This document shows, one piece after another, positions 1 to 60,868 of a DNA stretch of 64,000 bases. Every line of letters starts with the position of its first letter. The first letter of the stretch is position 1. The position numbers and the translations under genes were made by a program. The notes under the pieces were generated by a model. The model had not been told where the DNA came from. It did not search any database and worked only from the letters and a program-made list of their open reading frames with translations. Source of the DNA: Asterochloris sp. CNOR1 (taxonomy: Eukaryota; Chlorophyta; Trebouxiophyceae; Trebouxiales; Trebouxiaceae); contig OZ017748.1 of NCBI GenBank assembly GCA_963969365.1, positions 1,550,001 to 1,614,000 on the forward strand, in the 5' to 3' direction.

Positions 1-3000
1 CAGGCTGTAGGCAATCAGCACTCTCACGAGGCCTCCCACTGCTGCCTTCTCCTGCTGAGAGAACAGGTTTGGGGCAACAGGGCGTACCTGACAGTCAAGG
101 GCTGCCACCAAGAAAGGCAACACGTCCTGCAGGCACGACAACTTGTCTTCAGTAGCCTTGCAAAGCGAAACAGGACTGAGGCAGCTGCTGTTCGCGTGCA
201 TACAGCTGCGACAACGCTGTGCAAACAAAGTGCTCACAAGGCTGCAAGCAGTGAAGAAGCAGACCTTAGCTGCTGCTCCGCCTGCCACCGTCTGGAAGGC
301 CTGAGGCCCGACCTCCCTCTGCCACTCCTGGAGCAGGGTTTGCCTTGCAGCGTGCTGCCTGGCAGCAGCAGCGCCTGCCTGTGGCCACTGCAGCTGCAGC
401 CTGCACGGGCCAAAGCCCCATTCACAATGTGTCCAAGTCATCTACTTTTGTGTTCTACTTTTGTGCATGGTGCAAGCCACCCTCTGTTTGTGCAATTTGA
501 TGGCATGGCCTTGTGCACCAGTGTGCCGCTAGCAAAGCCTGGTGTCGCACTCAAGCAGCAGTCCAGACGGCTGCACCCCAGCCAGATGCTAGTGGGACCA
601 GCTGATCATCACACAATGATGTTGCAGTGGCTGCTTCAGCAAACCATGGCATGAAGAGGCACGCTCTCGATCCCATGACTGCAGCCAGGCTGTGCCCCAG
701 CAAAGCTGTCCAAAGCGGTAAGCAGAACCAGCCAGGCTCTGCTGTGAGGCCATGCAACAGCAGCGTGCAGGCGAGCAGCACGCTGCCTGCTTGCCGCAAA
801 AACAGCGCATGAAAACAGCAGCAGCACCCAGCCCACCTGTTGGCCCTGTGCCCTGCCAGTGCACAGGCTGGCGTCGTGCTTGACCAGAACATACTCCCCG
901 CACAGTGCCAGGCTGCGCAGCAGCAAGTCTCTTTGCAAGCACCTCCCTCATCATCGACCGCCAAGAAGCCAGAGTGGCAGTCGCTGTAGCAGCCGGCGAG
1001 GAAATGAACCAGACCTCCAATGAGCATACCCCACCTGGTGGGCCCCCCAGCCAGGCTGCACACCAGCGCTCCATCAGCAAGGACAGCCCAGCCGCGTCAG
1101 GCTGCGCAACAGCATCCTGGCTCAGCAGCTGGCACGACGCAGCGCTCCAGATCTTGGGGTATGCCCACCTGTCGGGCCCTGCAGCCAGGCTGCGCAACAG
1201 CAGCGCACAGGCCGGCTGGTACTTGACCAGGGCCCACTCCCCGCGCCGGTGGGTCATCGCCGCAAACCGGTCGCTGGCGCCCAGCAGGTCGGCGATCGCA
1301 GCGGTGCGCCGCAGCTGCGTGTCCATGTAGCGTGTCCGGTATACGTTCTCATGGAGGCCGGCCATGACCAGCTCACTGTCGCCAAAGTCCTGCAGCATGC
1401 CCAGGCGCTGCTGCAACTGGGCAGCCGGGCTTGCGGCAGTCCGCCCACTGGGGACCTGCAGGGCAAGCAGCAAGGTCAGGCTGGCTTGTCTGCAGAGGGT
1501 GCGACAGCCTGGGCCTGGGGCTGCGGCCTGGGGCGAGGCCGCAGGGAACTTGCAGGGCAGAGGAGTGGGGCTTGACAAATTGGGTTGAAAGGGGATCAGG
1601 GGCACCAGCTGCAGGTTCCGGCTGCTGCGGGGCTGGTGAGGGCAGCCCCAGGCTCAAGAACCTGCAGGACAGAGGAGCCTGCATTTCCTACGCGCAGGCT
1701 GGCCTGCAGCCATGATGGGCTGGCACCCCTACAGTGTGCACAGCAGCTGTGCGAATCTGAGCGGGGCTGAGCCGCATTGAGCACTTGCAAGAGCAGCAGC
1801 TTTCTCTTCCATTGGTTTGCAGCCCACCTTGCTGACCAGAAGCTCCTGCCAAATGGCAAAGGCGCCCTTGCTCACGTCCTTCTGCCCAACCTGCAACCGG
1901 TGTATGTCTGCCGTGGTGATGGGCCGCAGTCGCCTGGCCAGGAACTGCAGCGTGTTGAGGCAGGCCCGCACATCGCACTCCGTCTTCAGGCACAGCGCCT
2001 GCAGCGCCTGCAGCGCACATCACGCTGTCATGACTCTGACGCATGGTGCCCCCTGGGCAGCCATCGCAGCAAGCTGGGGCATGCGCCCATTTCTGTAGTG
2101 GAAGCTCATCAGCTCATGAGACATGCAACAACCGTTGCTGACCTGCCACAACTGTGTCTTGCTGGTACTTCTGACTGTGCTGCCTGCACTGCGCAGCCGT
2201 GCTGCCCTCTGTGAGGGGCCCCCCTACCTTGGGGTGAGGAATTGATCCGACCTGGCTTGAGAGCGCCGTGTACTTCAACATGAAGAGACAAGAACAACTG
2301 TCAAGTGTGAACAGCTGAAGCAGCAGGGATGTGCTGGGCAGCAAGCACATGCGCAAGGCTGCTGTTGACCACCCCCTGCAAGCATGTGCGGGCACTGCCC
2401 CATGCACTCACCTCACAGCCACCACGCTCACCATGCATGGGCAGCGCTTCACCCACCGGCTTGTCTATGTCCACGCCCTCCTGCCCACAGATCATGCGCA
2501 ACCTGGTCACCAGCCGATCGGCAGCCGGGGCCCTGAACTGCAGGACCTTGGCAACTGTCTTCAGCGGCCGGAGGGCCGGCGCATGCAGGTCATTGCAGAC
2601 CGCAATCAGGGGCCTCCTCAGCGGGGCCCCCTTCCTGCCCTTCCTGACTGCCTGCAGTGCAGCTGGCTCCCCTGGCTGGGCGTCAGCCCCGCCTGAGGCC
2701 TCCTGCCCTGCGGGAGGCAGCAATGCAAGGGCTCCAGTCAAGCCCCAAAGTACGATGGTGCTTGTGCTGTGCACGAGGCAGGGGAAGGTGGGCATTTTCC
2801 CCCTGCCATCTCTCGAGGCTGCCCTGAGGCGTGGCCAAGTGAGTGCAGATGTTGGCAGGGCGTCAGTGCGCCCCAACAAGCACAGCTGGATGGCTAGCTT
2901 GTTGCTCAACTCCAGCTGGGTGCAGGCCGGATGGCTAGCATGCTGGAGTGACATGCGCTGCCAGGCACTTGCAAAGCTGAAGCCTGACTGGAATGCCTCA

Positions 3001-6000
3001 CCACCAGCATTGATGAATCTCAGCAGCACTTGTGCTGCACTCTTCCCCTCTGCGCCACCTGCAAGGATCCAGGAATCTTGAATGTGGGTGAGCTTCTCGC
3101 AGAATCCTTAAGACTGTCCTTGAAAATGTTCCCTGCAATGGCACTCACCTGCAACGCCATCCACCTCGTCAATCACCACCAGGTTGGGCTTCCTCTGCCC
3201 AATGACAGACTGCATTTGCACCGCGTCCTGGATGCGCGACTGCAGTGCGGTTGCTGAGCGGTCATCGCTTGCATTGATTTCCACCGTTTGATAGCCGCAG
3301 TGCTTGGCAACCACGTGCGCAATGGTGGTCTTGCCCACGCCTGCAGCAGACATGATTCAATGTGCGATACTGGGTCCGCACCAGGAAAGTGCTGAAGTCA
3401 GCGCAACCTCAGCCACATAACACAACAGCTAGGCTGCATCAACATGCCTGTCTGCATTTTCTGTGTGGCTGCCAGCTGATGGTCTCATTGCACATCTGGT
3501 GGGCGGCTCCTGGACCCCACCAGCTGGCATGCTGGCTTGACCCTGGCAATGGCAGCATCCATGCCAGCAACCCAATTCACGGCTTGAAGGCTCATTCATG
3601 GCCCACCTGGCGCGCCATGCAGCAGCAGCAGCTTCTGCTCTGGTCTCAGCAGGGGCGCCTGCTTCACAGCCAGCGGCCCCTTCTGCGGGGAAGACGGCCG
3701 CGGCTGCCTTCCAAAGACGCATGGATCCCAGGCCTTGACCCATTTGACCACCTCCCGGTTGACCTGTTCCTCGCTCAGCAGCTCCAGGAAGCTGCGGGGG
3801 GCGTACTTGTCCACCCAAAGCTGCCCCTCAGACGAGTGCGGGCTGGGAAAGGGCGGCCCTGCAGTATGAGGGCGCTCATCGCCAGTGCAAAGGGGCAACC
3901 TCCAGGTGTGCTCAGGTGTGGCAGGTGTCCACTCACAGCCGCTCCTCAGATGGGGGCAGGCTGGGAAAGGGCGGCCGTGCAGGCAACTTCTGTCAGCGCC
4001 TGGTGCCTGTTCAGAACGTGTTGTCAAAGGCCTGCTTCCTTTAACGGCGGGCTACATTGCAGGCCAGCCATTCTGCCTGCCCCCAGCAGCACTGCTGCCA
4101 TGAAGAGCATGTAAGACTCAGCTTGTGCCGGGTGACTGCCCTCACCACTTTTGCGCAGACCGGCCTCCTTTCTGGTAGCTTGCAGTGTTCTGCTCGAGCC
4201 TGCTGGAGCGCGCCTGCAGCCCTCCAAGACCTGCCCCACAGCCTCTGGATGCATGCGATCACACCTTTGCACTGTGCAATCCCACCTGCATGCTTTCCTA
4301 GGGCAGTGCCCATGAGCCACTACTTGAGACTGAAACCTGCAGAAGCCTCTGTCTCTCTGGCACTCTCCTGCAGCATGTCACTCTAGCTGCCATGCCAACC
4401 CCTCCTCCCCGCTCCCTCACTGACAGCATGCAGTCTCTGCCTCTGCCACACAGGATGTGACAGAACAGCAGATGGCCTGCAAAGTCACACATCCACATGC
4501 TTCTGCCTACTTAGCCTTTTCCTACCTGCCACTCATGCAGAAGGTCCTGGTACTAAACCACACTCTGCCTTTCACCCTGATAGCATGCAGTGTCTGCCTC
4601 TGCCCCATAGACAGATGCTGACATGGTCAGAGCAGGCACACCTGCGCATGCTGGTGCCTCTCGGGCACTCTCCTGAAGCGCCTGCTGCAGCAGTGGATCC
4701 TGCTCCTCATCCAGCATCCCCTCAAGAGTTTTGGACTGCTGCACAGCCCTCCTCAGGTTCTCGTGGTTGATGTCCTGGATGATCTGGGCCATGGGGCGCG
4801 ACAGCAGCTGCTGCGTCTTGCCCTGAACCTTGGCAGCAACAGCACCCTGCCTGCCAGGCCTAGGCCTCTGCACAGAGATGCAGACAACGTCAGTCACTGA
4901 GCCCTGGAAAGTAGCTGCATGTATGGTCACTGACATACGCTGCAGCAGCCCTCTGCTTGCATGGCCATGCTGCCAGTAGAGAGACAGCTCCCTCACCAAC
5001 TCCTTGACCCAGGACAGACTTCTTTTGCCTCATGACGGGGCTAGGAGCACGCTGGGTCAAGAGGAGAGAGAGAGACAACAGGGGCCCAGCAGTAAGGGCC
5101 TCAGCAGCACAATCTAAAACAGCAGGAGCACTGCACCAAGCAAATGTCTTGAGCGGGGAGGCACATGTGAGGAACTCCCAATGTCTGAATGGTACTTTGC
5201 AAAGTGGAACTCAAGGGGGGAACCCTTTGCACCAGTGCCCTGTGGCCTGTGAAGGCTTGTTGCAAAGTTACTGCTTGGCTGGGGTGCAGTTCAATTGAAT
5301 GAATGGACTTTCACTGCTCACCCTCAAGGTGCAGTACGCCCGTCTGCCATCCTCCAGGGTGACGGTGAATTCTTTCTCTGGCCTGGTGGGTGAGCAGGCT
5401 GCAGGCAGTCCCCGCTCTGGCGACGTTTCAGCCTGCACCTCCATGTCAGGCCCAGAAGGCATGGCCTCTGCCAGGCCTAGGGCAGGGCCGACAGGGTGCG
5501 CTGATGACATAGCTGGGCTTTGCAAGGGTGCTGCGACGGCAGGCACACTGCCCACCTGCAGGTGCAGCGTGGTAAGTATTGGTCCTGAGCTCAAGACTGC
5601 ACCCGCTAAGGGTGAGCTGCAGCTATACGGGGACGCTGCAGCAATTACCTGTGCTGCTGGGCGCCTGCCAGAGGCTGCATGGTGCTGGATTGGCTGCCTC
5701 AGCACTGCCTGTGCTGTAGGTGCTGCCCATTCCTGACATCTGCCTGGCCTGATGCCTGGCCTGCCTGGGGAGCAAAGTGGGTCTGAGGCCTGCTGCGGAC
5801 CGGCTGGACCCTGCCAAGCTAAGTCTGGGAGATCATCTGGTGGCTCCAAGTCGTCGACATTCCATGCATCGCAGCGTGCTCGCTTTCTGCCTGCAGGACA
5901 ACTAGTCCATAAGTGCCAGGCCTCAGCAACATAAGTCTGGCAAAGTTTTTGGCGGCACAGCTCACTGGAGCCCTTGGAGCCATCTTCACCAGGACGCTTT

Positions 6001-6139: not shown

Positions 6140-6280
6140 CAGGAGGGGCACAGTGGCTGGTTCGTTGCAGGATTGAGCCAGCAAGAAACGGCCAAGACAT
6201 GTTCAGTCAATAGTCAGTCAATGTTATGGGTATCTGTTTTTCGGAACCAACTTCACAGCTCTAAAATCACAGCCATCTGC
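6140..6280. promoter_or_regulatory. Divergent promoter between CTF18 and eIF4B-like gene
   Basis: Only 141 bp separate the CTF18 ATG (6139, minus) from the eIF4B-like ATG (6281, plus). This stretch must hold both 5' UTRs and core promoters. It is AT-richer than its flanks (for example around 6200-6270). I see no clear TATA box. Bidirectional control is inferred from geometry only. Confidence 0.6.
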
Positions 6281-9200
6281 ATGGAAACTCGTGGTTCAGA
6301 GGGATCGGAAGGCCCCCAGAGACGTAAGTTTAACCTGCTGGCCGCCTCACAATTATGCTTCTGTGTACGCTTTGATCTGTGTGAATTCTGCATCGTTGGT
6401 GGGAGTGTAGGTCAAAGAACCTCTGGACATGAACTGCTGCCTGTTCCATTGCAGGACGCCTCAACTTGAAGCCCAGGGATCCTGATGCAGCTGCCAAGGC
6501 AGACGCTGAGAGCAAACAGAGTTCAAGAAGCGTGAGACAGTGCTGATAATCAGTTGATTGCGGCACCAAATAAGTAAGTCAGCTGAGTCTTTCATCTGTT
6601 GTCTTGCCTTGCCCTGCAGAACCCTTTTGGCGCTGCCAAGCCAAGGGAGACAGTGCTGGCAGCCAAGTCTGGCAAGTCAGAGAAGGACATCCTTGCAGAG
6701 GAGGCAGCCAAGGCCAAGCTCAACGTTGGTGGCACACTTGGCATGCAGTCGCATCTCAATCTCGCTAAGTCCCTCCAGGAATTGTGTCAGTGCACTGCTG
6801 CACCCCAGCATCGTTCCAGCTGAAAACGACATCAATAAATCAGGCTTGCCGCACTGCCTTTGTCTTAGTTGCAGCTGCAGACAACACAAGTAGCAAGCCT
6901 GTCAAATGCACCTGCAATGGCATTCTTCGACATTGGAGGTCCTCCTGCTGCAGCTGCGTCTGAGCCGTGAGGAGCGCGACCAGAAAGAGGCGGCCGAACA
7001 GGATATCGAAGACCTGAAGCAGGTGCACATGCTGCTGCATCAGCAATTTGGCAATCCGTGGCATCAAACTGGCAATCACAGCACACAGCACAGCAGGCAA
7101 ATTCAGGGCAGGACAAGGGCTATATGGGCTGGAAGCCTCTGAGCGCGGCAGGTGCACACTTTGGGCTTGCCACGGCTGCTGTGGTTGCTTTGGCATGAGG
7201 CAGATCAGAAGGGTAGCCTGCAGCAAGAAATCAGGCAGAGGCTGCCAGTGTGCGTGGCATACACCAAAAGCAGGACTGGTGCCCCGTTCCTGCTGCAGGT
7301 TCCTGAGGGGCTGCCCATTTGCAAGGTCTTTGCAGGTTGGCAAGGTCCGGACTGTGTGCAGGAAAGCATCAAATGAGGTCATAAAACTGCAAGGCGTTTG
7401 ATAATTGTGAGCCTCTTGCGCCAACCCTCACCGCCTGCTGTTGGGCTCTCGGCCACCCACGAGTGCAGATCTGGACAGGGACAGAGAGCCAGAATGCAAG
7501 ACGCAGACGCAGCAAGTGATCTGAGAAGCTGTCAATCCTGCGCGCAGGTGCTGGATGGCAGAGAGCAATCCCGGATGCAAGAACCGCTGCCAGCAAGTGG
7601 GCCCTCAGCTGCCACCCCTGTGTGCAGGTGCTGGACGGGGAGAGTGAGCCCGAACGCAAGACACAGCTGGAGGCTGAGCTGAAGGAGAAGCAGACGGCAT
7701 TTGACACACTGATGAAGCAGTTTGAGGTGAGGCAGGGTGCCGGTGGGGGAGACAGTGCAACAGCTTTCAGAGCAGACTGAGCTGAAGGGAGGCTGAGGTG
7801 GGGCTGGGCTCAGCCCAGCTAAGGAGGAGCTCCAGCAGGTGGTATGATAGTCTGAGGTGGAGACACAAGTGGGGCTAGGGGGGCAAACATAAAGACACAG
7901 CCTGCTCTGCAGGCTCAATCTGCTGCAGCTTGAGGATAGGTCAGGCTCAAGGCATCAGGCAGCTTCCAGGTGTCATTTGGCAGTTCTGCAAGCTTCAGCC
8001 AGAGAGCAGGGCTGCCCCAGTGGGAGCAGTGAACCAGGGAACATTCGTATCAGCTTGCTTCCCTATTGTCAGCAAGGCACAGAATGCTGGCAGGCGAGGC
8101 TGCCTGAACTTGCACTCCCTGCACATCAGTGCCTGGGCAGGCAACACATGTCAACTTGGGTATATGTTGCAGCTGGGGCAGCCCTCCCCCTGCCCCTGCC
8201 ATGGGCTGAGCATCACAGATGATATTTAGCTTCAATGTCATGCTGTGGCGGCACCCTGAGACACTGGTTGGGAGCAAACCTCAGCCTGCCAAACTGCTGC
8301 ATCTAGCCTGCCCCAATGGCACAGCTGGCTTTTAACTCAACTGACCTTGCCGGCAGGACATGGCGCTGGAGAAGGCCAAGACTGGCGGGGGCATGCGCCC
8401 CAGCGAGCGGCGTGCCCAGCAGGCCATGCAGGACGGGACCGGCCTGACCCAGAGGGGCAGCGGGGGCCTGCCCTATGGCGGCGCAGATGGCTTTGAGAAT
8501 TTTGGCGGGCGGCAGAACAGGTAGGTTCCTCATGCGCTGCTTTTGTTGCATGTTGCGCCGCCCAGCTTGCATTCCCACGGCAGCAGAGCACACATGAGAT
8601 ATGTTTGTCAGGGGCAGAGCAAAGATGCTTGCCTATCTTCGTCTTTTGTGGCTCTCAGTTGCGCACCATTTGCAGGGGTGGGGGTGACTACGGAGGCGGC
8701 TCCTATGGCGCACCTGCAGAGTCTTTTGGGTGAGTGTGGTGGCCTTTGTAGCAAAGTAGGTTGTGACTTTTTATATATTGTAAGTGCTGCACCTGAGGTT
8801 GGCTGCCATGTCCTGCCGTCTGGCATGCATGCCAGCTTTGCATGGCAGTCTGCAGCAGCTGCAGCATTGAGATAAAAGTGCCTCTGCTGCTCTGCAGATC
8901 TGGCGGCGGCGGTGGAAACTATGGTTTCGGTGGGGAGTCGGGAAGCTTTGGTGGGGATGACCGCAGGTGTGTCAGTGTGCTCAGTGCCCAGCCCTGTCAG
9001 GCTTACACCTCACTCCTGATCGCAGTCACAGACCCCTCTTGTGTGCCTCACAGCCCACTCCACTGCCATGCGCCAAAACAGACAGCTCACAATCAACACC
9101 TCACTCGAGTATCAAGTTTGTGGCGCACCACCGACACAGAGCCCGCCTGCAGCCCTGTCTAATGTCGTGCAGGGGTGGGGGGCGCGGCAAGGGCCGCGGT

Positions 9201-9351: not shown

Positions 9352-9515
9352 AGAGGCTTACACATTCTATGACCAACAGTCTGCTGTCACTGCTCACGTT
9401 GTAAGGATGCTCAGAGTGTAGTGCTACAAAGTATACATGCATTTGGTTACGCAGGTGTGCTCACGCTGCTTGTTATGCTGCTTGCATTCACTGCTCATAC
9501 TCAGATGAAATAAAT
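9352..9515. other. Convergent 3' intergenic spacer
   Basis: 164 bp between the eIF4B-like stop and the ChaN-like stop on the other strand. It contains TGTAA at 9400-9404 on plus, a chlorophyte-type polyadenylation motif. I see nothing else in it. Confidence 0.5.
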
Positions 9516-16543: not shown

Positions 16544-17575
16544 GCAACAGCAGCCGGACCTAGGTGGCAGCAGCATGCCCTGCCCCAGCCAGTGCATCGC
16601 GTGCTCTATGCGCTTCCCTGGCTGCTGCCCCTGTGTCTGCAGCAGCACCAGGTGTTCACTAGCCTGCGGCACGCGACAGCTCCTCAACCCTGCATCAGCC
16701 CACCTGCTGGGACTTCTGGCAAGGACTGCCGCTGTACAAGCATTGCATCACCATCTGTCCCTGACTAGTCATGTTCTGATCTCAATGAATGTGTCCTCAT
16801 GAGCACCTCGATTCAGCAAGTCTGGAGGGTGAAATGTTCTTGAGTTGCACTTCATATTATGCTGTGGCATGCAGCAGCCTCAGACTGACCGCTAAAAGTC
16901 TTCTGTGTGAGGGGGGCTTGGCTGCTGCATACTGCTCAAGGGCACGCGTGCAGCTGTAAAGGGCTAAATTCCTGGGAAAGAGAGACACACAGGAGATTGT
17001 CTGACCAACGGGGAGACAGGGAAGCCTTGCGCCACAACTCAGGAGATTGTGGGGACAGATACTCGCCGGGGACACGAAAGCCCGGTTGCCATAACAGAGG
17101 CAACAGGGCTTCATAGAGCATGGCAGAGTTGCAAGTCCAGCTTTTGATCAAGAAATTCCCAGTAGAGAGGATCGTAGCAACTCTTTGGTGTGCTAGGGGA
17201 CAGCACGTTACAGATCACTTTTGCAGCATCTGCATGCCCAGCTCACTGGGGAAGAATGGCTCTGACATGCGCACCGCAGGGTGCGACTTGCCTACAGCAG
17301 ACGTGCGCATTGTTTCACTTGGTTCAGGTTCGAGGGCTGCTCTGTGCAGATGGCCATGGCGAGATGTTGCATGGCATAGGGGCACATGTCTGCAGTTCCA
17401 GTGTGTGAGCAGCAGGGGAGCACAGCAGAAGGGCTGCACATCTAAACAGCACTTCTCACCAAGAATGCCATTGCCCACGATGCCCTGGTCGCACTGCAGG
17501 GTCTGGGCACTGATACCGCCTGCAAAGCAGAATGACTGGTTGAGGCATTGCTCTTAGTAAGTACGGCATATCCTG
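16544..17575. other. Intergenic, convergent gene ends
   Basis: About 1 kb between the stop of the 344-residue protein and the stop of the dehydrogenase on the opposite strand. TGTAA occurs at about 16956. Open frames exist on both strands, for example plus 17120-17557, but none has recognisable motifs or convincing splice context. I see no gene here. Confidence 0.5.
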
Positions 17576-20600: not shown

Positions 20601-21158
20601 GGCCTGGTTGCTCCAATCAGGCTCCATCCTGCTGTCAGGCAGGGTTGAGCAGATCACAATAGTGTCTATGCTAGGGACATTCGTGACAGAGAGATCTATC
20701 CAGGATGTGTTGGTGTTGGGGCATGATAAGGGCATTGGTGTTGATGGGTCTGGGCATGGCCTGAAGATCCCTCTTGTCTGTGCGCTCCAAGTGTGTGCAC
20801 GGCCAGGAGAGTTTTGCTGTCATGTGAACATGTGCCAACAGTGCCGGGTAGAACAGCGTTGCCTTGGTGCCAGACCCTGCAGCCAACACATTGCTCTGCC
20901 TGACTGCCTCCCTCAGCAGGCGAGCTGCCTTGCATGTTGGATGCAGCCGCCAGAGTGTGTTGGAGTGCTGCCTCAGTGCCTGCCTCAGAGGCCCAAGACG
21001 CTCTGGTGCATGTGTGGCTGCCAGGGGCAGCCCTGCGACCCGGGCTGCCTTGCTGCCACCCCCATCAACCTAATGGCTGGCGTGCAGCACGCAGCCGCCA
21101 GGCCAGCCCGACACCCTGGCCTGCCTTGCTGCCTGCCCCACACACCAGAGCGTGTGCT
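20601..21158. other. Spacer between H4 variant and acidic orphan
   Basis: About 560 bp, open in one frame from 20934 but with Cys/Pro-rich composition typical of non-coding sequence here (GCTGCC repeats near 20900-21150). It could be an intron if the two flanking genes are one transcript. I see no independent gene. Confidence 0.4.
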
Positions 21159-45766: not shown

Positions 45767-48700
45767 TCAACCCTCCTCTGACTTGGCTGAGGCTATTGGC
45801 TGTGCGCGCAGCTGTCCCTCATACACAGCATCCCTCATGGGCTCCAGCTCATCGCAAATCTCCCTGAAGGTTGGCCGCTTCCTGTCATCAGGCAGCATGC
45901 ACTGCTGGGCCAGCTCCTGCAGAGGGAAACAGTTCGGTCATTGGCGCTGCATCAAGTGGCATAAAGCACTTGCCCTGTCAGAAGCCATTGATCAGGAGGC
46001 ACTGCACGGAGGTCAGTGACACCAGTGCATGACATACCAGCAGGCAGCGGGCAGGCGCCTGCACGGTGTGCACACGCAACCAACCCAGGCCGAGTAGTCG
46101 GGAAGCATAAGTGGACGTGCCGTGGACACGAAGCGCACCAGACTTGAATGCACAGTCCAATGCCTGCTTGCCTCATATGGCGCTGGTGTGCCGGGAGGGA
46201 AGTCCAGCGACCCCAATCCTCGCATCTTCTGGGCAATGACCTGGACATGCCTCATGCCAGCCCAGGGGCGAGTGCCCACATACAGCTCCCACACTGCAGG
46301 CAACACACACTGCTGCCTAAATGCCTCTTCATGGGCGATGTACTGGGCAGCAGCGCCCCTCAGATAGTGCACTGTGCACTGCCGGGCACCAGCCACACTG
46401 CCGGGCACCAGCCACGCACCACATGGCGGCCATATAGTAGCACATCCCCACGGCTGCCCTGTTGAAGAGCAGGACAGCGGCAGAGGGCTGCCCCTGCTAT
46501 GGGCACAGCTGGCACCAGCAACACGCCATGCGCCAGTCAGACAGCAGCTGAGGCTTATGGGAGCCCTCCTGAGGCAGCAAGGCAGCAGCAGAGGGCTATG
46601 CACTTCCCTTCCATGGCAGGCGGCGACTCACTCAGGACGCCAAAGGCATATACATCTGCGCCCCGTGTGAGGCGGCCCTCAGACAGCAGCTCTGGCGGCA
46701 TGTGGGTCACAGTGCCATACGTTTCTGTGGCAATGCCAGTGGAGCCAGTAAAAACTCGGCTTAGCCCAAAATCTGACACCTGCAGGACTGACTGAGACCT
46801 TGAGAAAGCTGAGCATGGATGCACGATGGGAGGCAGCACAGAACACAATGAAGATCATGGGTTTGTCAAGTCCTTGGACCCATGCTGTCAGGGAGCAGAC
46901 GCCCATAAGCACACCACGCCACCACAGCTGTGGTGAGGGGCACTTTCACCTTCACAGAGAAGGGACGCTCATCCATGCCAGGATTGTTGACCAGCAAGAT
47001 GTTGTTGCCGTTGAGATCCTGCAGGCAGGGGATAGGCACCCTGACGGGCTTGTCTGTGCCTGCCAGGGAGGAGAAGCTTGCTGGTGAGCAGACCTGTTGC
47101 TGCCCCCTAGGTGCTGCAGGCAGGGGGCGAGCACACTACATTGCCTGTTTGTCCATGCCAGGAGATGAATACTTGCCAGTGAGCAGACCTGCTGCCGGCC
47201 AGGTCCAGCAGGCAGGGGATCATGTGTTCCACAGACGCCCACAACCGCACACATGCTGTTGCTGGTGCAGAGGAAGGAGGGACATGTTGCTGAGGACAGT
47301 TGACGGCAGCAGGGAAGAATGTCCCCTGCCATCCCCCGGCAGCCCAGCAGGCAGAGCCACAAACAACCGCAGTGGAGCAGGGTCAATCCCCTACAACAGC
47401 AACATGCAGCACTCCTGGCCTGGGCACCCGGCAGCTGGCTCACGCTGTGCAGGATGTCCAAGCTGTGCAGGTAGGCCATGGCTGATGCAATCTCCACCAG
47501 CGTCTGCATGATGCGCACCAGGTCCGGCAAGTCCCTCTGCCTGCAGCAGACACCCACACCGTGTCAGAACCTGCTCAGGCAGGAGTTCCTGCACAGGAGT
47601 CCCTGCTCAGGCATGAGTCATGAGGCCGCCCTGCTCCAGCACCCTGCTGCAGTGCAGGCCTGGCGTCAGGCAGCAGTCAAGCGACTCCCTGCTGCCTGCC
47701 TGGCCGCAGCAAAGTGAGGAAGGGTGCGCAGGGAGCAAGTTGGTCCAAGCCAGGGGTGCACGGCCAGCTGACGGCTTGGCACCCACTTGGAGCTCCGGAA
47801 CGCTCCACGGTCGGTTGCTTCTTGCAGCGACCCTCTGTTGCAGAGTTCCTACAGCAGGACCCCAAGGGTCAGCTTGACAAGCGAGCAAAGCACGCAATGT
47901 GCCGGAAATGCTCACCAGCAGCCTGTACAGAGCCTGTGACTATAGCATCTGGCTGCACCACTGGTGCACAGCAGTTGCTTGATGCTGCAGGTGTGCTGGC
48001 AGCAACGTTGCCACTTTTGTGACCATGTATTGACAGCCCCTCTCTCTCCCAGGCATCACGCAGAGCACAAAGCGCAAAGGCTGGGCAGGCATGATGGGAA
48101 CATCTCTGCCCTGCGTCAGCCCTGGTGCCCAGCTATGTGGGTAGCTGCACACCTTCAGCCCCAGTCTCCAATGCAGAGTGTCACAGGAAGCAGCCACTCT
48201 ATCAGATGACCTCAGCATGCTGATTCCTGGTCACAAAGCCAGTTTCAGTACTGCCAGTATGGGAAGCCAGGTCTCCATGACCCTGGTTCAAGCCAGCCGC
48301 AGGCTGGGGCCCCGAAGGGCCGGGAGGCACAGCCAGCACCACCACAGCATGGCTGCAGTGTCCTCAGCCACAATTGCAGTGTGACACAGCAGTTGCTCTC
48401 TCCACTTACAGCTAGTTCACAGCTTGGCTCAGGCTGGTCCGGTATCCTGCGCCAGCATGTGCCCTGAGACTGTGCACCACCTGGCCAAGCCGGGAAGTGA
48501 CACTCATCTGTGACAGGGCTTGAAAGCTTCCCTGTCATGTGCAGGATCACAAGCCCACCAGGAGGATCCAGGTCTCCATGACTGTGGGCGCCAGCTTGCG
48601 CCCGGAGGCTGTGCACAGGTCGGGAGTGAGGCCCCCGTCAGCGGAGGCACTGTCCTCCTGGAACGTGGTCAGGCTGCCGTCCGCGCTCAACCTGTTCAGC

Positions 48701-51700
48701 TCAGCTAAGTTGGCCTGCACAGGACAGCACAAACGTCAGGAGAGCCATTCACTTTGATTTTTTGGGAAGTAGGGCGGCCGCAGCTGTGGCACAGTGGGCA
48801 CTTCTTCACCACAGTGGCTCAGCTCAGACAGGTCGGCCTGCACAGCTGCAGGAGGGGCAGCTATCTGTCCCAAGTCCTGAGAGTACCACAGGCAGCATGC
48901 TCTGCCTAAACAGGCTGGGGGCGAGTGCAGCATCTTGCCCCTTCCATGCACAACTGTCAAAGGGAGTGCACAGAGCTCTGCAAGCTGGGTGCCACCCATC
49001 CACGGTGCAGCACCCATCTTTTGCAGAGACCGTATGCACACATTGCTGTGCTGACATGGCCATGCATGCTCCAAGCAGGAAGCTGGGCCTTGAGGATACT
49101 CACCGCCCGCTCACAGGTGGTGAACTTGAAGGTGCGCACGATGTTGGGGTGCATCATCTTTAGCCCCAGGATAGCCTCCAAGGCCTCGTTGCTGGCTCGC
49201 TGGGCCTCCTCAGTGGAAAGGTGCTCAATCATCTGCAAAGGCAGGACTGAACCCCTCAAGCCTGGCCAGATCAGAAGAAGCGCTCAAGTGTCCATTTTCT
49301 GCTGGTGCTACAGGCCTCTCCTGTAGGCAGGTACTCAATCATTTGCAGAGGCAGCAAAAATAACTGTCTGAGAGATGCTTTGCCCATGGCAGGGATGCCT
49401 TGTCAGTACCACTTGTACTAACGACACTGGATGCAGGGCAGGGGAAGTCCAGCGAGAGAGACTCTTGAGCATCTGCAGGGCAGGAAAGTAGCTGGAGGGG
49501 CTGTGAAGGTGGTGCAGACCATGAGCTGATTGTGCAGAAGCATTGTGCCTCCTCCGTGAACAGGGGCTCAGTCATCTGCAGTGATAGCAAATTCACTTTG
49601 CAGCACCCAGACAATCAGTGCACAGGTGTCCAGTCAGTTGCTGGCAAAAAGGGCTGCCATAGTGGGTAGGTGCTCCATCACCTGCAGGGCAATGTAAAAC
49701 TCAGCAGCAGGGATGCTCTGCAGCATGCCGGTGTGCACATGACAGCTGCATGCTCTGTCAAGTTCAGGGGTGCTGCTGGCCTCCTGGCACTCTGTAGATG
49801 TGAGGTTGGCAGGCAGGGAGCGCCCTGTGACTGCAGCCTGCACGCCGCTGCACAGCAGGGGCGGATGGACAGTCCAGCAGTCAACACCCACCTTGATTGC
49901 AGCCTTGTGAACAGCAGGAGCACGAGGACTGATCCTTGATTGCAGCCTTGTGAACCGCAGGAGCATGTGGACTGATCAACAGTCCTCCCCCCACCCCTTT
50001 TCCCCCCGACTAGGTGGCAGGCGGCACGCCTTGATGGCAGCCTTGTGCACACAAGGAGCAGCCAGAGAGTTGTGCCCTCACTCACTCTCCCTGCACGTCT
50101 GGAGGGCAAGGAGAGCGCACCTTGACTGCGACCTGTGCACCATTCCAGACGCCTGAATAGACAGCCCCAAAGCTGCCCTTGCCCAGCAGCTGGCCCAGCT
50201 TCACATCCTCAAAGGGAGTGGTGCGCTGGGTCTCCCCGCCCACGTGCGTGCCTGTTGAGCTTGCCTCCACAGAGGCGTCCGTCGCATTCCTCATGGCAGC
50301 TGCAGGCAGCCCAGGACCTGAGGGCAGCGCTTGCCACTGCAACCTGCTGCTTGCGATCGTGCAGGTGCAGCCTCAAGCAATGTCTATGTGGCTCAGGAGA
50401 GGCTTTGTGCTTGACAAGCTCTGGACTGTGCTGGTACGTGGGCACCCAGCTGTGCGGCTGACAGGCCTGAGGCGACTCTCCCATGTCAAGGCAGCGCACA
50501 TCTGCAGGTTAGATGCCAGCACTGGTTATGGGGCGGACAGCAGGCCACAACAGAGGCGCCCACCTGGCTGAGGCACAGGGTAGATCCCCGTTGGGGTCAT
50601 GGACTGGGAGGGCTTGATGATGCCAAACCAGAGATTGCCCCCAAGCAGGCCATCGATGTCCTGAGGGCGCCCCATGCCGTCGGCCGCCGCCTGCTGGGAT
50701 GCTAGCCTGCAGCAGGGCAGCAAATATGGGGTGGTAGTGCTGCAGTTGACCTGCTGCAAAACCTTCATCAGTGCACAGAAGTTGGCTGGTGGCCTCCTCA
50801 AGGTCTGGAGGGACTGGTTTGCCGCATGGAACTGGATGGCCTAGAGACGATCACTCTCCTTGCACATCAAATCTGCTGAGCATAGCTAGGCAGCCATCAC
50901 ACCCGATGTGTCCACCCACCTGAAGGTGATGTGGTGCAGCTTCTTCCCACTGCTGTGGGAGCGCACCACCTCAGCGGTGAACTCCTGCTTGCGTTCAATG
51001 TGGTTCATGTACTGCAGCCACAACCGATCTGAGGAGCACCCTGGCACCCGGAAAATGTCCCAGAAGCCCTTGCCAGAGGTCGACATGCGCGAGCTGCCTG
51101 CAGTCAACATGGGCTCAACAGGCCTCGCCCAAGATACTCTCCTGCAGGTGCCTAAGCAACCTTTTGCTCAGGCAAGCTGCACAGCTGCACTGTAAGCCTC
51201 ATGGCAGCAGGGGGCCATGCACGAGCTGCCTGCAGGCCACAAATACACTGCTGCTGTTTACAGTAATATGGCAAGTCAAAACTAGCCAAGAGCTGCCTAA
51301 GGCCCACAAGCACATGCCAGGGAGACTGGGAGAATTGGGCGCTTGAGGCTGACATCCTGTTGCCACTTGAAGTGCGACAGGCCCAGCAGCAGCTCTGCAC
51401 CTGGTGCCACGCACCCTCTGGCAGATCCTTGTGCCATTTGTGACCCTCAAGGCGAGAGCAGCACAGAAGGCACTCCTTCCATGGCTGTAGGCCACCACGA
51501 CAAGCGCTGTAAGCTGTGAAGACCGCAGTGCGCACCCTGCCCACCTGTAACTTGCCGCCATCCCTCATTGGCAAACAGCATTGGCCAGCCTGGCTTGGTC
51601 ACATCCAGCAGGGCCACTGCATCGCTGACGCCATCCATGATGACCTGGGTCAGCTCAATGGACTTGCGCTGCTCCTCAAAGGTTTGCCTGCACACAAGTG

Positions 51701-54700
51701 AGAGGGTCTCTCAGGAGACCTGGGTCAGTTTGATGGACTTTGTTTTGCCTGCATGGTAGGGAATGGAAATTTATTAGCCCACTGGACCTGCGTGGCTTCT
51801 CAAACATTTGCCTGTGGGGCAAGCATGGTAGGGAATGGAAATTTATTAGCCCACTGGACCTGCGTGGCTTCTCAAACATTTGCCTGTGGGGCAATAACCG
51901 GGTCCCATGTTGCGGCAACTTGTTGGCTGCCTTTGCAGACAACGTCCCGGGTCTCTGGCCTGTAGAGCTTTGTCATGCCACTCAGCTGGTTGCAGCTGTG
52001 GTCTCCAAAGGGACAGCAATAGGCTGCAGCTGGCAGATTTCACTCTGCAGCAAGCAGTCGGGCCGCCCAGCGTCCAGCTGGCTGCATCTCAGCTCAGACG
52101 GGACGGGGCCCAGCACTGTGTGGTAATAGCCCAATCATCGTGACCAAGCAGGGGCCAAAAGGCCTGGCCATCAACTCCATGACATGAATTGCCTGTCCCC
52201 TCACTGTAGCTGAGACTGTTGTGTTTGATGTCTGCGGGCCACATCCTGCTTCCAGCGCAGCTCAAGCTTGTCTAGTACAGCCTAGTCTGGCATCTTCACA
52301 TGAAGGGGACTCAGCAGGCAGCCTGCGAACACACCTAGCTCCTCTGTGCGCCTCAAATTGGCGCTCCACGTCGCGGGACAGCATGTCTGCAAAATTGCGC
52401 AGGAGGGAGGCGTTGTCCGAAGTGAGCGTCCGTGGGGCCCAGTCCACGACACACCTGTAGAGGGGCGCAGCAGCATCTTTCAGCAACTGCAATCGTTCAT
52501 GCAGGCGGGCAGGGTGTCAAGCCAGTTGCTCACCGTCAGCGTCATATCACACACAGGAGGCAGGGACTAGGCTTGTCTGCAGAGGGGCTGCACTCAGACA
52601 CATGGAGGGCCAACAGCGGGCAATACTGAAGCAGCAGCAGTCCATCACACATGGGGCCTGCCCCCTGCTGGGCTTGCAGCGTCGCTGCCGTGCACTGGAC
52701 AGCACCCTGATACGCTTCGGACGACAGCAACATCGAGAGAGCCTGAGCTCTGCAAGGCACTCACAAGGCTCCCAAAGGCTCCCCCTCCTGGGTCATCAGG
52801 GCCATGCCAGCATAGAAGCGCATGCTGGGTCTGGCAGTCACCAGCGAGCACATCCTGAACCTGCACAGCACAGGATGCTGCTCAGCAAGCTCTGATGATG
52901 TGCAGCGCAGAGCACTCTGCTCTCGACACTGGACAAAAGCCTCAAGTAGCAATACAGGCCTCCTGGACCTGCTCGTGGGCCCCCTGAAAAACTGAGCTGC
53001 ACAGCCACAGTGTGCAAGCGCAGTACAGCCCTGGTCCTGAGGCCCTGGGGGATTCATGCTCAGCAGATCATCTGGCTTGCACTGCATGCAGCTTGGCAGA
53101 TCAGGCATGGGCAGCCTTGACCAACCTGGACTCCGGCTGCGCACGCTGCCTGGGGAGGAGAACATCAGGTACACCTGCTGCCTGACGTTCTCCTCCCCTC
53201 ATCCTTTCCAGGACAACAGCAGAAAGCAGCAGTTGTGCAACCCTGCCACTGCTGACCTGTGGTCTTGCTGAGTGTCGTCCACGCTCAGAAGCTCGTCCGT
53301 CTCACACTGCATGACAGCGCTGGTGAATGGGCGCCAGGCGGCGCCATCAGCCTCCTCCAAGCCCTTGGCTGTCTGCTGCCAAACCTGGTTGTCCGCGAAG
53401 CAGGCCGCGGCCTTGGGCACGCCAAACATGCTGAGCATCAGCTTCAGGACAAAGCTGATCTTGGTCTCCACCTCAGCCATGTTGACCTGCAGAATAGAGG
53501 CAGGCGTATGATCACAGGGGTCCTTGCCTGAAGCATAGTTGCCAGCATACATCTCCTGCCCCACAGTTCTGGCTGCTGACAAAAAGGTGATCTTGCTGTG
53601 CCCAAGTCTTCCATCTGACATAGCCCTGCCTGCCAGAGGTGCAGCCCCGCAACAGCATGCGCACCGGCACTTGCACTTGCATACCACCTGCGCCTGTGTA
53701 CAACACATACTGGTCCCCATGGCGGGGGACCTACAGCTGCCCAATGTGGAAATGGTTCGCTGCCAGCAATGCAGCCTCGAGTGCCCGCTTCTGGGCACCT
53801 GCATGTCGCACAGCTCCCTGTCCCCAGCTTGCCAGGGGTGCAGCCCATGCACCCTTCAGGCAACCCTCAGCTGCCATCACCGCCAGCCAGCGGCATGCCG
53901 CACATGACCACCCTGCGGGCAGACTGCTTCATGTTGGAGGACAGGCGCCCTTGCTGTCAAAGCAGCATCATGCAACCCCCCGGCCATCCATTGCTGCACT
54001 CCAGGTACCTGCAGAGTCTGCAAGATCCCTGATGCTGAGGGTGGGTCCAGCCCTGTACACCCCTTTGGAAAGCTCACCGGTGCATACCCCGACCAGCCCA
54101 CCTGCATGTCGCAAAGGTCCCCCATGCGGGCTGACTCCCCCATGGTTGAGGGCGTGCGCCCGCGCTGCTGCCTTGGCTGCGCGTGGAAGGGGGATCCCAC
54201 AGAGGCGGCCCGTGTCAGTCCGCTGCCGGGTGCTGCAGGGGGCTGCTTGCTGATCCCCCCCATGTCGATGGAGGTGTGTCGCTGGATGCTTTGCAGGGGC
54301 ATTGGGCGATCCCCTTGGCTGCCTTCTCGGCTGACTGCCTCAGAGCCCTCCTCAACTTCCTCCATCTACAGGAAAGATGGAATGGTTGATCAATGGCTGA
54401 GCAAGTGCCTTGCAGCTTGGGGCACTTGAGCCATGTGTTTGGCAGATCTGAGCCCAGCTGCTGCTCAGATCCTCCTGACGTCACTATCTAGGGTGCTGGG
54501 TGCCAGAAACACAGTCTGAAAGCGCACATCTGCTCAATCCTGAGACAACACATTTCAGCAGCTCACTTGGCTGCCTGTGCCTCTGATGAGGCACACCTCA
54601 TGCTATCTGGTTTGCTCTGCAGTGCTCTCCCAACAGGCCGACCAGAGGCCCCAGCCCTGCCTGCTCTGTCTGCAGACGCATGTGCTGCTGCAAAGGGCTC

Positions 54701-56444: not shown

Positions 56445-59400
56445 ATGCCTGTCGCCATGCAAATGCAGATGACAGGGCGGCAGACTCGCCTGGCAGGCTC
56501 AAGGTAGCCCCATGCTCCGCTGCGGCCCCTGTACGGCCTCACCCGAGGCCTGGAAGCTCGATCTCGCACATTTTGAGATCACACCTGCACTCGGCAGGCC
56601 TCATGCAGCAGTTTGCCTGCTCAGGTGGTCCTGAAGCAGCCAGAATGCCTAGCTCACAGCATGTGCCTGCCTGCTTGCAGGCCCCAAGGCGCTGCACATG
56701 CACCGCTGGCTGCTCCCAGCAGCAATTTCATGCGGGTGAGGTTGGCTGCTCTAGCTGAGGCTTCATAGTAGACGGGCCCATGCAGGCTGAAGATTGATGC
56801 TGACCGTGCCTTGCAGGGCCAGCACGTGTTGCGCTCATGCAACAGCGTTCAGGTAAGCAGCTCTCGATGCCTGATCAAGTGTCGCGTCTGATGACCTGCA
56901 TGCCGGCCACTCAAGCTCACATGACATGCTGCCTGTGGCTCATGGCTGCCCCTCAGATCCAGCTGAGTCAAGGTCCAGGGCGCCTCTCCCAGGCACAAGG
57001 GCGTCCACTGGCTTACCTTGCGTGCAGGCAGCACATGCTGGCAGGCGGCACCAGCAGGGAGCCGGCCGTGTGGTGGTGGTGCGGGCTGAGAAACGCACAG
57101 TGGTGATTGGGCTGGCAGCAGACTCAGGCAAGATTGTGACCACTCAAGGCTGCATGCTCTGGGTTTCTTGGACTTGAGGCCGCCACCCAAGATTGTGCTC
57201 TCTATGTTTCTGACCTGCAGCAGCCTTGGGCCACCCTGCGGCTGCTTGGCTACTCCTCTGTGCGTCAAATGACACTCACTGAGCTGGTGCTGATTACTGC
57301 AGGGTGTGGAAAGTCTACGTTCATGAGGCGAATGACCTCTGTGTTTGGCGGCAGCCCCAGGCCACCTGCAGGTGAGGTTGGCCAGTCTGAGGTGGAGGCT
57401 GGGATCTAGTGGCAGGCATGAGCACTTCTGTTCTCAACATCGCCCGCCTCTCAGCCAATGTCAATCAGTGATGGTGCGCTCTCTGCAGCAAGGCAGATGG
57501 TGCCTAGACACCTGACAGGCAAGGACCAGCGCCCAAAGATATGCCCGAGGTGGTTCAGGGCTTGCTCTGCCATGGATCGCATGCCTGGCAGGAAAGGTTG
57601 TCAGCCTCTCAGCTGGTCGACGGTGCAGGCAGCACTCCACCTTCAAGTCCCTGAATGCATCAGCAACAACAGCTGTCACCCGCTGTGCATTGCCGGCTGC
57701 AGGTGGCAACCCTGACTCCAACACCCTGATCTCAGACTCCACCACTGTGATCTGCTTGGACGACTACCACAGCTTGGACAGGAACGGCCGCAAAAAGGAG
57801 GGCGTGACAGCTCTGGACCCCAAGGCCCAGGACTTTGAGCTCATGGCCGAGCAGGTGGGCCAAGCTCTAGAGGTGGCCTGTGGTGTGGGTGCAATTGCTG
57901 TTTCATGAGGCAACAAGGCAAGGGTACAGGGCAAGCTGTGCATTTGCTGTGTCCTGGGGTGGCTGTGGCACAGGCAGATGGCATGCTGTGCACCTGCTGA
58001 GTCGTGAGGTGCCGTGTCACATGTGAGTGCTGCAGCAGGCAGAGTGGACAACAGGCTGGGACTCCCACAGCAGAGCAGATCAGAGCCACCGCGCAGCGCC
58101 CGGCTCCCCACAAGGGCTTCAATTGTGGTCACAAGCTGCATTGCTGCACCACCAGTTGCTGGGCCATGCCATGCAGCAGGCAGCGTGCAGGGCAGCAGAG
58201 GAAGCCTGGTCATGCTTGCGTACCAGCGCAGTCCCCCTGAGGCTGTGCAGCCTCCCAGTCTGGCATAAGGGAGGCGGAGCAACCAGGAAGAATCAAATCT
58301 CAGTTGCTGAACGTCAACAGCCCTGACTCCCCGCCTTTGTAGGTCAAGGCCCTGCGCAATGGCGAGAGTGTGGACAAGCCCATCTACAATCATGTGACAG
58401 GCCTGCTGGACCCCCCCGAGAAGACTAAATCACCACACGTAGGCAGCCCCAGTATGGCCAGGTTGTCTGAATTTGCTGTGTGCAGCGTCTGCGTGTAGGC
58501 ACCCTGCTGCCAGCCACCCATAGCACCGGCTGCCCGGGCCTCATGCAGATGTCCTGCGGCTTGCTGTGCATCATTGAGTGCCAGCTTGTGACACTTGCCT
58601 CCTCGCTGCAGCACCTACCACAGTCAGCTCTGCATATGACGAGCCTCCCAAAATATGCCAAGCAGGCACATGCCTGCCCTGCATTCAAGCATCATAGGAT
58701 CACACACTGCAGGCTCTTTGGTATCACCCCTTCCACAGTCCTCTGCTCTGCACATGTCTGCCTGAAAACTCCCGCAACTCCTGATCACATGCCTGTAGAT
58801 CCTGGTCATTGAGGGCCTCCATCCCTTCTACGATGAGCGTGTGCGTGATCTGTTGGACTTCAAGATCTACCTGGACATCTCAGACGACGTCAAGTTCGCC
58901 TGGAAGCTGCAGCGTGACATGGCTGAGCGGGGGCACTCTGAGGAGAGCATCAAGCAGTCCATTGCGGCCCGCAAGCCTGACTTTGATGCCTACATCGACC
59001 CCCAAAAGAAGCATGCAGACGTCATCCTCCAGGTGAGGTCTGCTTCTCGCCCGCAAGGGTGTTAGTACAGGGGTCACATGCAGCCATGAAGCTTGGAAAC
59101 CCCAGAGACGTCTTCGTCCAGGTGAGCCAAACCTGCGCCAGGCAGCCCAGCAAATGTGAAACCTGGTGCAGCAGTATGACTCTGCCTGACATTCAGCAGC
59201 CCACACTCCACTGTGCTCGTCCCCACCATGAGGGAAAGACAGCACTTCCAGATGAAGCACGCAGATGGCATCCTCCAGGTGAGGCTGGGCTGTTCCACGC
59301 CTGACTGCCCACTTGGGCATGATCAAGCCAAGGCGAGGCCCTCACAGGGCTTCCCGTCTGTAAGGCATAGCTCAAGTGTTGCGGCCTGCTCAATGGTTTT

Positions 59401-60868
59401 GCATCTTCTCTGCTGATTGCTAAGACAGCCAGGCTGCTGTGCGTGGGGCTTGCTGCAGGTGCTGCCTACCCAGTTGATTCCTCACGAGAAGGGCAGCCAG
59501 CCCTCCTCACATGTGTAAGCTTGCATGTGTAAACCTGCCTGCCCACCCACTTGATCCCCGACAATACGGAGGGCAGCCCACAAGGAGGCCCAGACCGCCA
59601 TTGTTTCCTGTTCGAAAATTGAACCCTACCTGCTTGTCATGGTTCTGCAGGTGCTGCCCACCCAGCTGATCCCAGATGAGAAGGAGGGCAAGGTGCTGCG
59701 TGTGCGTCTCATTCAGAAGGAGGGCGTCAAGTTCTTCAACCCGAGCTTTCTGTTTGATGAGGGGTCCACCATCTCCTGGATCCCCTGCGGGCGCAAGCTC
59801 ACCTGCTCCTTCCCAGGCATCAAGTTTTACTATGGACCCGACACCTACTACGGCGAGGAGGTGGGCAGGCTGCCTTGGCTCATAGCATAGAAACTCGGTG
59901 GAAAAGCTGTGCCTGTGCATGAGTTGCGCAGGCACCTGTCTAGCTGCAGGAGCTCCAGGCAGGGTGTGGGCTTGCTTAAAGTCGTGCAGGCACCTGCTGT
60001 GGCGAGTGGGGAGGCAGGCTATGCATGGTGCTGCAGGGGCCTGCCGCCTTTGGCGGCAGCGGGTTGTTTTCTGCATGTGTTGTGAACTTGCTGTGCAGTC
60101 GGCTGCAGAGGGCACCCATGTGATCACGTTTAAGGGCAGCCTAATGCATAAGCGCTGCAGACCCTGATGGGGCTCGTGCTAGGGCAGAGAAATTGGCGTG
60201 AGCTGCATGGGCGTCTTTTGACTGTGAAGTACATGGGGGCCAGGGGGTCTTCTGTATCGATCTGCACAGCTTCTCAGTGCGACATTGTAGGGGCCTTGTC
60301 CAGTAGAGGTTATTCCTGAGCAACAGCTGCCTTCTGCCAGCCCAGCTGGAGGGTCAGTCAAGCAGTGGCTGGGCCTCAGCAATGTGACATTGGTGCAGGA
60401 AGCAGCTATGCACCCAAACCCCACCAGGGAATGCGGACCATCACCTGTGTGTACTGCTGCAGGTGTCTGTTTTGGAAATGGATGGGCAATTTGACAAGCT
60501 GGAGGAACTCATCTATGTTGAGAGCCACCTCAGCAACACCTCTGCCAAGTTCTATGGCGAGATTACCCAGCAAATGCTGAAGAACAGCCACTTCCCCGGC
60601 TCCAACAATGGCACTGGTCTTTTCCAGACAATCTGCGGTCTTAAGTTGAGGGAGGTGTATGAGAACATTGTGCAGGAGGTGAGCTCTGGCATCTGTTCTG
60701 CATCGGCTTCTAGCTTCTCAGAGCTTTCATGCATGACCTTGCTGCACGCTCTGTGCTGCAACCCCTGCGGCAGCATGGAATACTGTGTCATGCAGACATG
60801 GCTGTCAAGGTCTGGGTTGCCCTGATAGTGGGATGTGTGTGCTGCAGAATGTGAAGCCTGTGGTGTGA
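56445..60868 (+). CDS. PRK: Phosphoribulokinase, chloroplast precursor
   Basis: Calvin-cycle enzyme phosphorylating ribulose 5-phosphate with ATP in the chloroplast stroma. Ten exons close in phase (56445-56503, 56817-56852, 57045-57127, 57303-57371, 57703-57854, 58343-58438, 58799-59032, 59651-59860, 60463-60678, 60848-60868), giving 391 residues, the normal precursor length. The first ~47 residues are a transit peptide (MPVAMQMQMTGRQTRLAGSR, then Ala/Ser/Arg-rich) with probable cleavage near VVRA/EKRT. P-loop GLAADSGCGKSTFMRR contains the first regulatory Cys; TTVICLDDYHSLDR the second, and WIPCGRKLTCSFPG the third and fourth, so thioredoxin and CP12/GAPDH regulation is expected. Other hallmarks: NHVTGLLDPPE, LVIEGLHPFYDERVRDLLD, RDMAERGHS, GSNNGTGLFQT. 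It ends VQENVKPVV. The intron after exon 3 begins with GC rather than GT. TGTAA, a possible polyadenylation signal, is at 60981-60985. Confidence 0.98.
59001..59290 (+). repeat. Three-copy exon-end/donor echo in PRK intron 7
   Basis: The real exon 7 end KKHADVILQ with donor (59008-59040) is followed by echoes at 59084-59128 (GACGTCTTCGTCCAGGTGAG) and 59248-59290 (reads MKHADGILQ, CTCCAGGTGAGG). Donors are intact in both. Confidence 0.92.
59451..59700 (+). repeat. Three-copy acceptor/exon-start echo in PRK intron 7
   Basis: The real exon 8 start VLPTQLIPDEKEGK (59641-59700) is preceded by echoes at 59451-59515 (reads VLPTQLIPHEKGSQ, with CTGCAG acceptor) and 59534-59580 (CCCACCCACTTGATCCCCGA). 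Confidence 0.92.

What the first reader, a model, noticed from the sequence alone, without database searches (positions are those of the whole stretch)
832..59700. Introns throughout the window carry degraded copies of their flanking exon ends and splice sites
In at least five unrelated genes (CTF18, eIF4B-like, UTP10, GAF-PAS kinase, PRK) introns contain one to four extra copies, 35-70 bp long, of the adjacent exon end plus its splice site. Donor-side copies always sit downstream of the real donor and acceptor-side copies upstream of the real acceptor. Many copies keep GT or AG. This is too regular for chance or for ordinary exon duplication and suggests a genome-wide process: repeated small tandem duplications centred on splice junctions, lengthening introns and producing decoy or alternative splice sites. 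I know of introner elements and of intron gain by tandem duplication, but not of this junction-echo pattern as a described system.
Basis: partly seen in the sequence, partly recalled or inferred. Interest (0 to 1): 0.88.

Follow-up and report, generated by a model that had tools for sequence, protein, structure and literature searches.

The report
Decayed tandem duplications inside algal introns
Introns of this green alga carry decaying copies of nearby exon ends, which look like fossils of an old wave of short, untargeted tandem duplications and not like a mechanism aimed at splice sites.

Summary
The echoes are real. In the window plus four other 50-kb blocks of the same genome (264 kb), 119 local direct-repeat pairs face 3 inverted ones. 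Exon-edge 40-mers have a copy in their own intron in 48 of 768 cases, 40-mers 40-80 bp into the exon in 6 of 617, random intron 40-mers in 8 of 375; each control count is 0 or 1. The side rule holds in 40 of 40 junction-crossing pairs, but splicing alone enforces it.

Targeting of junctions is not needed. Copied splice dinucleotides survive in 26 of 40, the neutral expectation. Exon-echo differences fit one coding and one neutral copy. Strict tandem offsets are multiples of three in 13 of 14 exonic but 10 of 37 intronic cases. A hand-tuned simulation of short duplications at random places, with activity mostly over, comes close to the class counts, exon reach, offsets, identities and edge profile; continuing activity gives far too many near-identical pairs. 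A modest junction preference is not excluded.

Organism: Asterochloris. Verdict: a real, probably past wave of intron-lengthening tandem duplication. The mutation class is known; density, fossil pattern and timing are the new part.

The parts
1030..1201 (-). CTF18 donor echo 1030-1067 of exon end 1164-1201 (38 bp, 84%); a weaker third copy at about 825-925
   Evidence: the database model P0010 ends its exon near 1164, mine ran on into the echoes
3808..3982 (-). CTF18 acceptor junction 3808-3864 and its echo 3926-3982 (57 bp, 84%)
4420..4610 (-). Intron-internal pair 4420-4453 / 4577-4610 in CTF18
7452..7669 (+). Three related copies around the acceptor at 7628 of the eIF4B-like gene (7452-7506, 7527-7589, 7607-7669)
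21017..21140 (+).
31796..31936 (+). Acceptor echo 31796-31864 of junction 31870-31936, near-tandem, offset 74
37788..37925 (+). Acceptor-side echo 37788-37832 of exon start 37881-37925
43362..43712 (+). Acceptor echo 43362-43446 of junction 43627-43712
47000..47218 (-). Kinase gene: repeat with offset 95 across predicted small exons
49201..49580 (-). Kinase gene: acceptor junction at 49201-49244 with echoes at 49313-49354 and 49544-49580
51064..51241 (-). Kinase gene: acceptor junction 51064-51109 and echo 51194-51241
51652..51894 (-). Kinase gene: exon edge 51652-51690 with echoes 51776-51814 and 51848-51886; the latter two lie in a perfect 72-bp tandem duplication 51751-51822 / 51823-51894
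53883..54167 (-). Kinase gene: donor junction 54093-54167 and echo 53883-53956
59002..59284 (+). PRK donor junction 59002-59038 with echoes 59248-59284 (86%) and a weaker one 59106-59126
   Evidence: the PRK product matches a solved enzyme
59453..59690 (+). PRK acceptor junction 59645-59690 with echoes 59453-59492 (85%) and 59539-59575

Best explanation
The echoes are decayed remains of short tandem duplications (unit about 60 bp, often with more than one extra copy) that arose at random positions, mostly in a past period. A duplication spanning a donor or acceptor survives because the first donor or last acceptor still gives the correct mRNA; the spare copy becomes intron and decays neutrally. 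Duplications inside exons survive mainly in frame. Exon-derived copies stay recognisable longer than intron-intron pairs because one partner is held by coding selection, so the visible record is richest at exon edges. Shown: local and direct orientation, neutral decay of the echoes, the in-frame filter in exons, sufficiency of an untargeted model. Inferred: origin in break repair (fill-in of staggered double-strand breaks) and the past-wave timing.
For: 119 direct against 3 inverted pairs. Similarity continues past the local alignment along the unit: mean extension score 5.75 against 2.33 in 69 pairs. Strict tandem arrays of period >=60 are placed as chance predicts. Dinucleotides kept in 26 of 40, identity 0.81 elsewhere. 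Nonsynonymous to synonymous per-site ratio 0.54. Strict tandem offsets are multiples of three in 13 of 14 exonic, 10 of 37 intronic cases. Untargeted simulation with activity stopped at mid-run: edge hits 17-19 acceptor and 28-30 donor of 375-395, interior 5 of 306-323 (two runs), and class counts, lengths, offsets and identities near the observed (four runs). Continuing activity gives 24-46 pairs with >=90% identity over >=40 bp (four runs); 2 observed.
Against: Parameters were tuned by hand over several rounds. The fitting runs have fewer pairs (86-102) and fewer intron-intron pairs (19-33) than observed (119 and 39), and a wider upper tail of exon reach (90th percentile 66-81 against 65). 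Whole-exon duplications were not simulated, so 8 observed pairs with both copies crossing a junction lie outside the model. One 60-bp copy at 91.7% identity has a 63-bp spacer and, by eye, no similarity on the intron side, which suits a spaced copy better. Gene models are my own.
Confidence: 0.76

Rival explanations
1. Junction-targeted copying: a splicing- or transcription-linked process copies about 50-70 bp around splice sites into the intron.
For: Junction-crossing pairs exceed random placement, 52 against 37.1. Exon reach is short (median 40 bp) and hardly depends on offset (rho 0.20, p 0.12, n=63). Edge 40-mers are hit about three times as often as intron-interior ones.
Against: A junction-patch process alone gave 1 intron-intron pair (one run) against 37 observed; a mix gave 16 and too long a reach tail (one run). 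Untargeted duplication with decay gives edge-to-interior ratios of about 1.4-3.8 for activity ending at steps 65 and 50, around the observed 2.9.
Confidence: 0.1
2. Spaced copying: break repair captures a nearby 40-100 bp segment and pastes it at a distance in the same intron, not next to its parent.
For: Only 16 of 119 pairs align over at least 85% of their offset. The 91.7% pair in block C5 has an unrelated 63-bp spacer. Repair by capture of proximal DNA is described in vertebrates (PMC2671141, abstract and passages).
Against: Almost no inverted copies, 3 against 119, whereas an inverted exon copy is among the vertebrate cases. Residual similarity along the unit. Strict tandem pairs number 9-15 in the fitting tandem simulations, so 16 is not too few.
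Confidence: 0.09
3. Functional alternative exon ends: echoes are kept as alternative donors or acceptors.
For: The PRK acceptor echo 59453-59492 differs from the exon by 5 synonymous and 1 nonsynonymous change.
Against: Overall 150 synonymous and 247 nonsynonymous differences, ratio 0.54 per site, as for one neutral and one coding copy; splice dinucleotides decay neutrally.
Confidence: 0.04

Closest known systems
Small tandem duplications from repair of staggered double-strand breaks (PMC8355091, abstract and passages; Vaughn and Bennetzen 2014 on rice seen only as a reference there)
   Same: Short, local, direct, no sequence family; known as the commonest short insertions in the human genome according to that paper
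   Different: Here units are tens of bp up to over 100 bp, dense enough to be visible in about 5% of junctions, and almost all old
[quoted passage not shown] PMC2891723, passages)
   Same: Tandem duplication involving exon and splice-site sequence; the potato case crosses an intron-exon boundary
   Different: No new intron: existing introns grow. Acceptor-to-donor pairs expected of the AGGT model are 0 of 119 against 3.1 by placement
Repair-mediated duplication by capture of proximal DNA (PMC2671141, abstract and passages)
   Same: Short local duplication that can copy splice sites and exons into introns
   Different: That study excluded tandem copies and includes an inverted exon copy; here orientation is almost wholly direct
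Tandem or mutually exclusive exon duplication (PMC9013439, PMC9741552, search listing only)
   Same: Duplicated exon sequence within a gene
   Different: Here only exon ends are copied and the copies decay neutrally
Introner elements (PMC9860276, search listing only)
   Same: Affect introns genome-wide
   Different: Introners are a dispersed family; here copies resemble their own neighbourhood (12 of 12 strongest repeats within 500 bp)

Membership tests
Short tandem duplication | Direct orientation, local | tested here: met
   119 direct, 3 inverted within 500 bp
Short tandem duplication | Copies adjacent over the whole unit | tested here: inconclusive
   16 of 119 align over >=85% of the offset; residual similarity along the unit in part of 69 pairs; one clear spaced case
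Short tandem duplication | Independent of gene features at birth | tested here: inconclusive
   Strict arrays of period >=60 placed as chance (n=20); simulation sufficient; all-pair placement test shows junction excess
Intron gain by tandem duplication | Donor region resembles acceptor region of the same intron | tested here: not met
   0 of 119 pairs, 3.1 by placement
Introner elements | Dispersed similar copies in many introns | tested here: not met
   12 of 12 strongest window repeats are local; only the sampled 264 kb was looked at
Repair-mediated proximal capture | Non-adjacent copies | tested here: inconclusive
   Most alignments are shorter than their offset, explained by decay in simulation but not shown case by case
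Functional alternative exon ends | Coding or splice-site constraint on the copy | tested here: not met
Functional alternative exon ends | Use in RNA | not testable with these tools
   No RNA data at hand

The most novel reading that the evidence does not exclude
A time-limited wave of short tandem-array duplication laid down a large share, perhaps half before deletions, of the intron DNA of this alga and then nearly stopped, so its introns are largely fossils of their own neighbourhoods, exon ends included.
Probability: 0.38. Interest if true: 0.68.

Novelty: new variant of a known kind. Interest (0 to 1): 0.47.

Why it matters
Where intron sequence comes from is seldom visible. Exon-derived echoes can serve as internal markers of age, because the exon keeps the parent sequence; this makes intron growth by tandem duplication measurable within one genome. 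Practically, echoes mislead gene prediction, as they did mine at the CTF18 3' end.

Tried and rejected
An apparent lower limit of about 60 bp on offsets was probably an artefact of blastn suppressing hits near the main diagonal (recalled program behaviour); a direct diagonal scan found offsets below 10 bp upwards. Protein repeats as the source: offsets of the exon-intron and intron classes are about even modulo 3. Paralogous genes on C6 were compared to date echoes: seven intron pairs, no exon-edge echo at the threshold used, one short internal repeat, sequences too diverged to help. Random placement as the sole null was kept but is unfair because it ignores selection. Simulations that did not fit: single-copy broad units (4 runs, 8 runs, 8 runs), tight single-copy units with or without insertions (7 runs), junction patch alone (1 run), mix (1 run). 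Ten array runs and further runs (8; 12) led to the fit. Paper searches on the pattern listed nothing that describes it; the library holds open-licence papers only, and searches showed 15 of 482, 20 of 137 and 10 of 47 papers.

Full report
What was checked. The window lies in a 56.4-Mb, 21-contig genome at C3:1550001-1614000. A short-chain dehydrogenase predicted at 16659-19511 is 99% identical over 98% of the query to a JGI Astpho2 protein; I recall Astpho2 as the Asterochloris Cgr/DA1pho code. The published Asterochloris glomerata genome is 56 Mb, GC 56-62% in 98% of it, nine introns per gene on average (PMC6652019, passages). I fetched 200 kb more in four blocks; with the window this is 264 kb, about 0.5% of the genome.

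Is it there? A strict self-comparison of the window found 12 repeats, all direct, all within 500 bp. At >=33 bits the window has 25 direct and 0 inverted pairs within 500 bp; three local dinucleotide shuffles gave no direct pair in that range. Over all blocks there are 119 direct and 3 inverted pairs at raw score >=36. An ungapped diagonal scan to offset 1500 gave 203 direct and 9 inverted at score >=20.

Gene models. No annotation was at hand, so I trained a hidden Markov gene finder without supervision on the 264 kb: 33 gene models, 560 exons (mean 152), 527 introns (mean 309), donor CAG|GTGAG, acceptor CTGCAG|G. The PRK product aligns from residue 129 to 479 with a solved chloroplast phosphoribulokinase, 6h7g, except for a 17-residue insert that corresponds to three small predicted exons at 59950-60119. 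Known errors: the model 19657-45266 probably merges several genes, 4 of 33 models hold an in-frame stop, and the CTF18 3' end took echoes as exon where the database model P0010, which the tool marks as encoded by the window, does not. All classes below depend on these models.

Where the pairs lie. Of 119: both intronic 37 (random placement 40.5), intron with acceptor junction 20 (10.1), intron with donor junction 20 (10.2), exon with intron 26 (24.9), both exonic 1 (8.8), acceptor with donor 0 (3.1); 15 fall in smaller classes. A junction is crossed by at least one copy in 52 pairs against 37.1. All 20 donor echoes lie downstream and all 20 acceptor echoes upstream, in the same intron. This is what splicing must leave: a duplicated donor is harmless only if the first is used, a duplicated acceptor only if the last is.

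Exon edge against controls. For the 430 introns >=120 bp, 40-mers at the exon edge find a copy in their own intron in 24 of 385 and 24 of 383 cases; 40-80 bp in, 4 of 307 and 2 of 310; 80-120 bp in, 1 of 242 and 0 of 240; random intron 40-mers 8 of 375; each reverse-complement and unrelated-intron control count is 0 or 1 (score >=16).

Do the echoes do anything? The splice dinucleotide is kept in 26 of 40, with identity near 0.81 in the rest of these alignments, whose square is 0.66. In the exon-echo pairs (criteria, which lists 63; one search printed no pair count) there are 150 synonymous and 247 nonsynonymous differences, 0.262 and 0.142 per site: one neutral copy and one coding copy. The PRK acceptor echo, 5 synonymous to 1 not, is the best exception.

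Is it aimed at junctions? Forward simulations without targeting were then run. Single-copy duplications with broad unit sizes overshoot the reach, and tight small units give too few far offsets. Units near 60 bp with geometric extra copies come closer. With activity stopped at step 50 of 100, four runs gave, against the observed value in brackets: pairs 86-102 (119), intron-intron 19-33 (39), intron-acceptor 17-24 (20), intron-donor 17-24 (20), exon-intron 24-37 (27), strict tandem 9-15 (16), median length 46-50 (50), median offset 112-136 (134), median reach 40-48 (40), junctions with two or more echoes 10-17 (11), pairs >=90% identical over >=40 bp 0-1 (2). Two runs gave edge counts 19 and 17 (acceptor), 28 and 30 (donor) and 5 and 5 interior hits. 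Activity up to the present gave 24-46 near-identical pairs and 56-73 strict tandem pairs. The edge-to-interior ratio is 2.9 observed, about 1.4-1.8 for stop at 65, 3.8 at 50, higher at 40 and below 1 for continuing activity. Since the age density of a steady process can only fall with age, the lack of young pairs points to a decline; collapse of perfect repeats in assembly is an alternative, although one perfect 72-bp pair is present at 51751-51894. The parameters were tuned, so this shows that targeting is unnecessary, not that it is absent; a modest junction preference, by my judgement up to about twofold, remains possible.

Less dependent on tuning: strict tandem arrays of period >=60 (n=20) fall in introns 8 (6.6 expected), across acceptors 3 (3.9), donors 4 (4.2), both 3 (3.3), exons 0 (1.2), between genes 2 (0.7). 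Strict tandem offsets of 12-150 bp are multiples of three in 13 of 14 wholly exonic, 10 of 37 wholly intronic and 9 of 19 mixed cases, as expected of one process filtered by selection, though coding low complexity may add to the exonic figure.

How much intron? In the two fitting profile runs about 1.2 accepted events per intron, each about two copies of about 64 bp by the settings, were needed. Before deletions this is about half the mean intron. It is model-dependent.

Mechanism. Fill-in repair of staggered double-strand breaks gives short direct duplications (PMC8355091, passages). I infer it here; breakpoints are too decayed to test. Other algal genomes could not be compared with the tools at hand.

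Noticed in passing
L025:2008-2190 (block C5 32008-32190): A 60-bp exon-edge copy at 91.7% identity with a 63-bp spacer and, by eye, no similarity on the intron side of the junction; fits a spaced copy better than a tandem.
   Followed up: partly
L015:9752 to L016:43 (block C2 39752-40043): Two successive predicted exons that are near copies (98 bp, 86.7%), with weaker fragments nearby: a possible tandem exon duplication.
   Followed up: no
L027:1034-1250 and 4669-4884: One exon region of a tandem gene pair is 92% identical while neighbouring stretches are 66-79%: possible gene conversion.
   Followed up: no
window 825-1105: Echoes kept enough reading frame and splice signal for my gene finder to call them exons of CTF18; the database model skips them.
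   Followed up: partly
window and blocks C1, C2, C4, C5: Offsets of 90-100 bp are in excess in the diagonal scan (21 at score >=20, against 7 for 80-90 and 23 for 100-125).
   Followed up: no
window and blocks C1, C2, C4, C5: Short tandem arrays are in excess in exons: period 8-30, 119 against 91.3; period 30-60, 19 against 8.5.
   Followed up: partly
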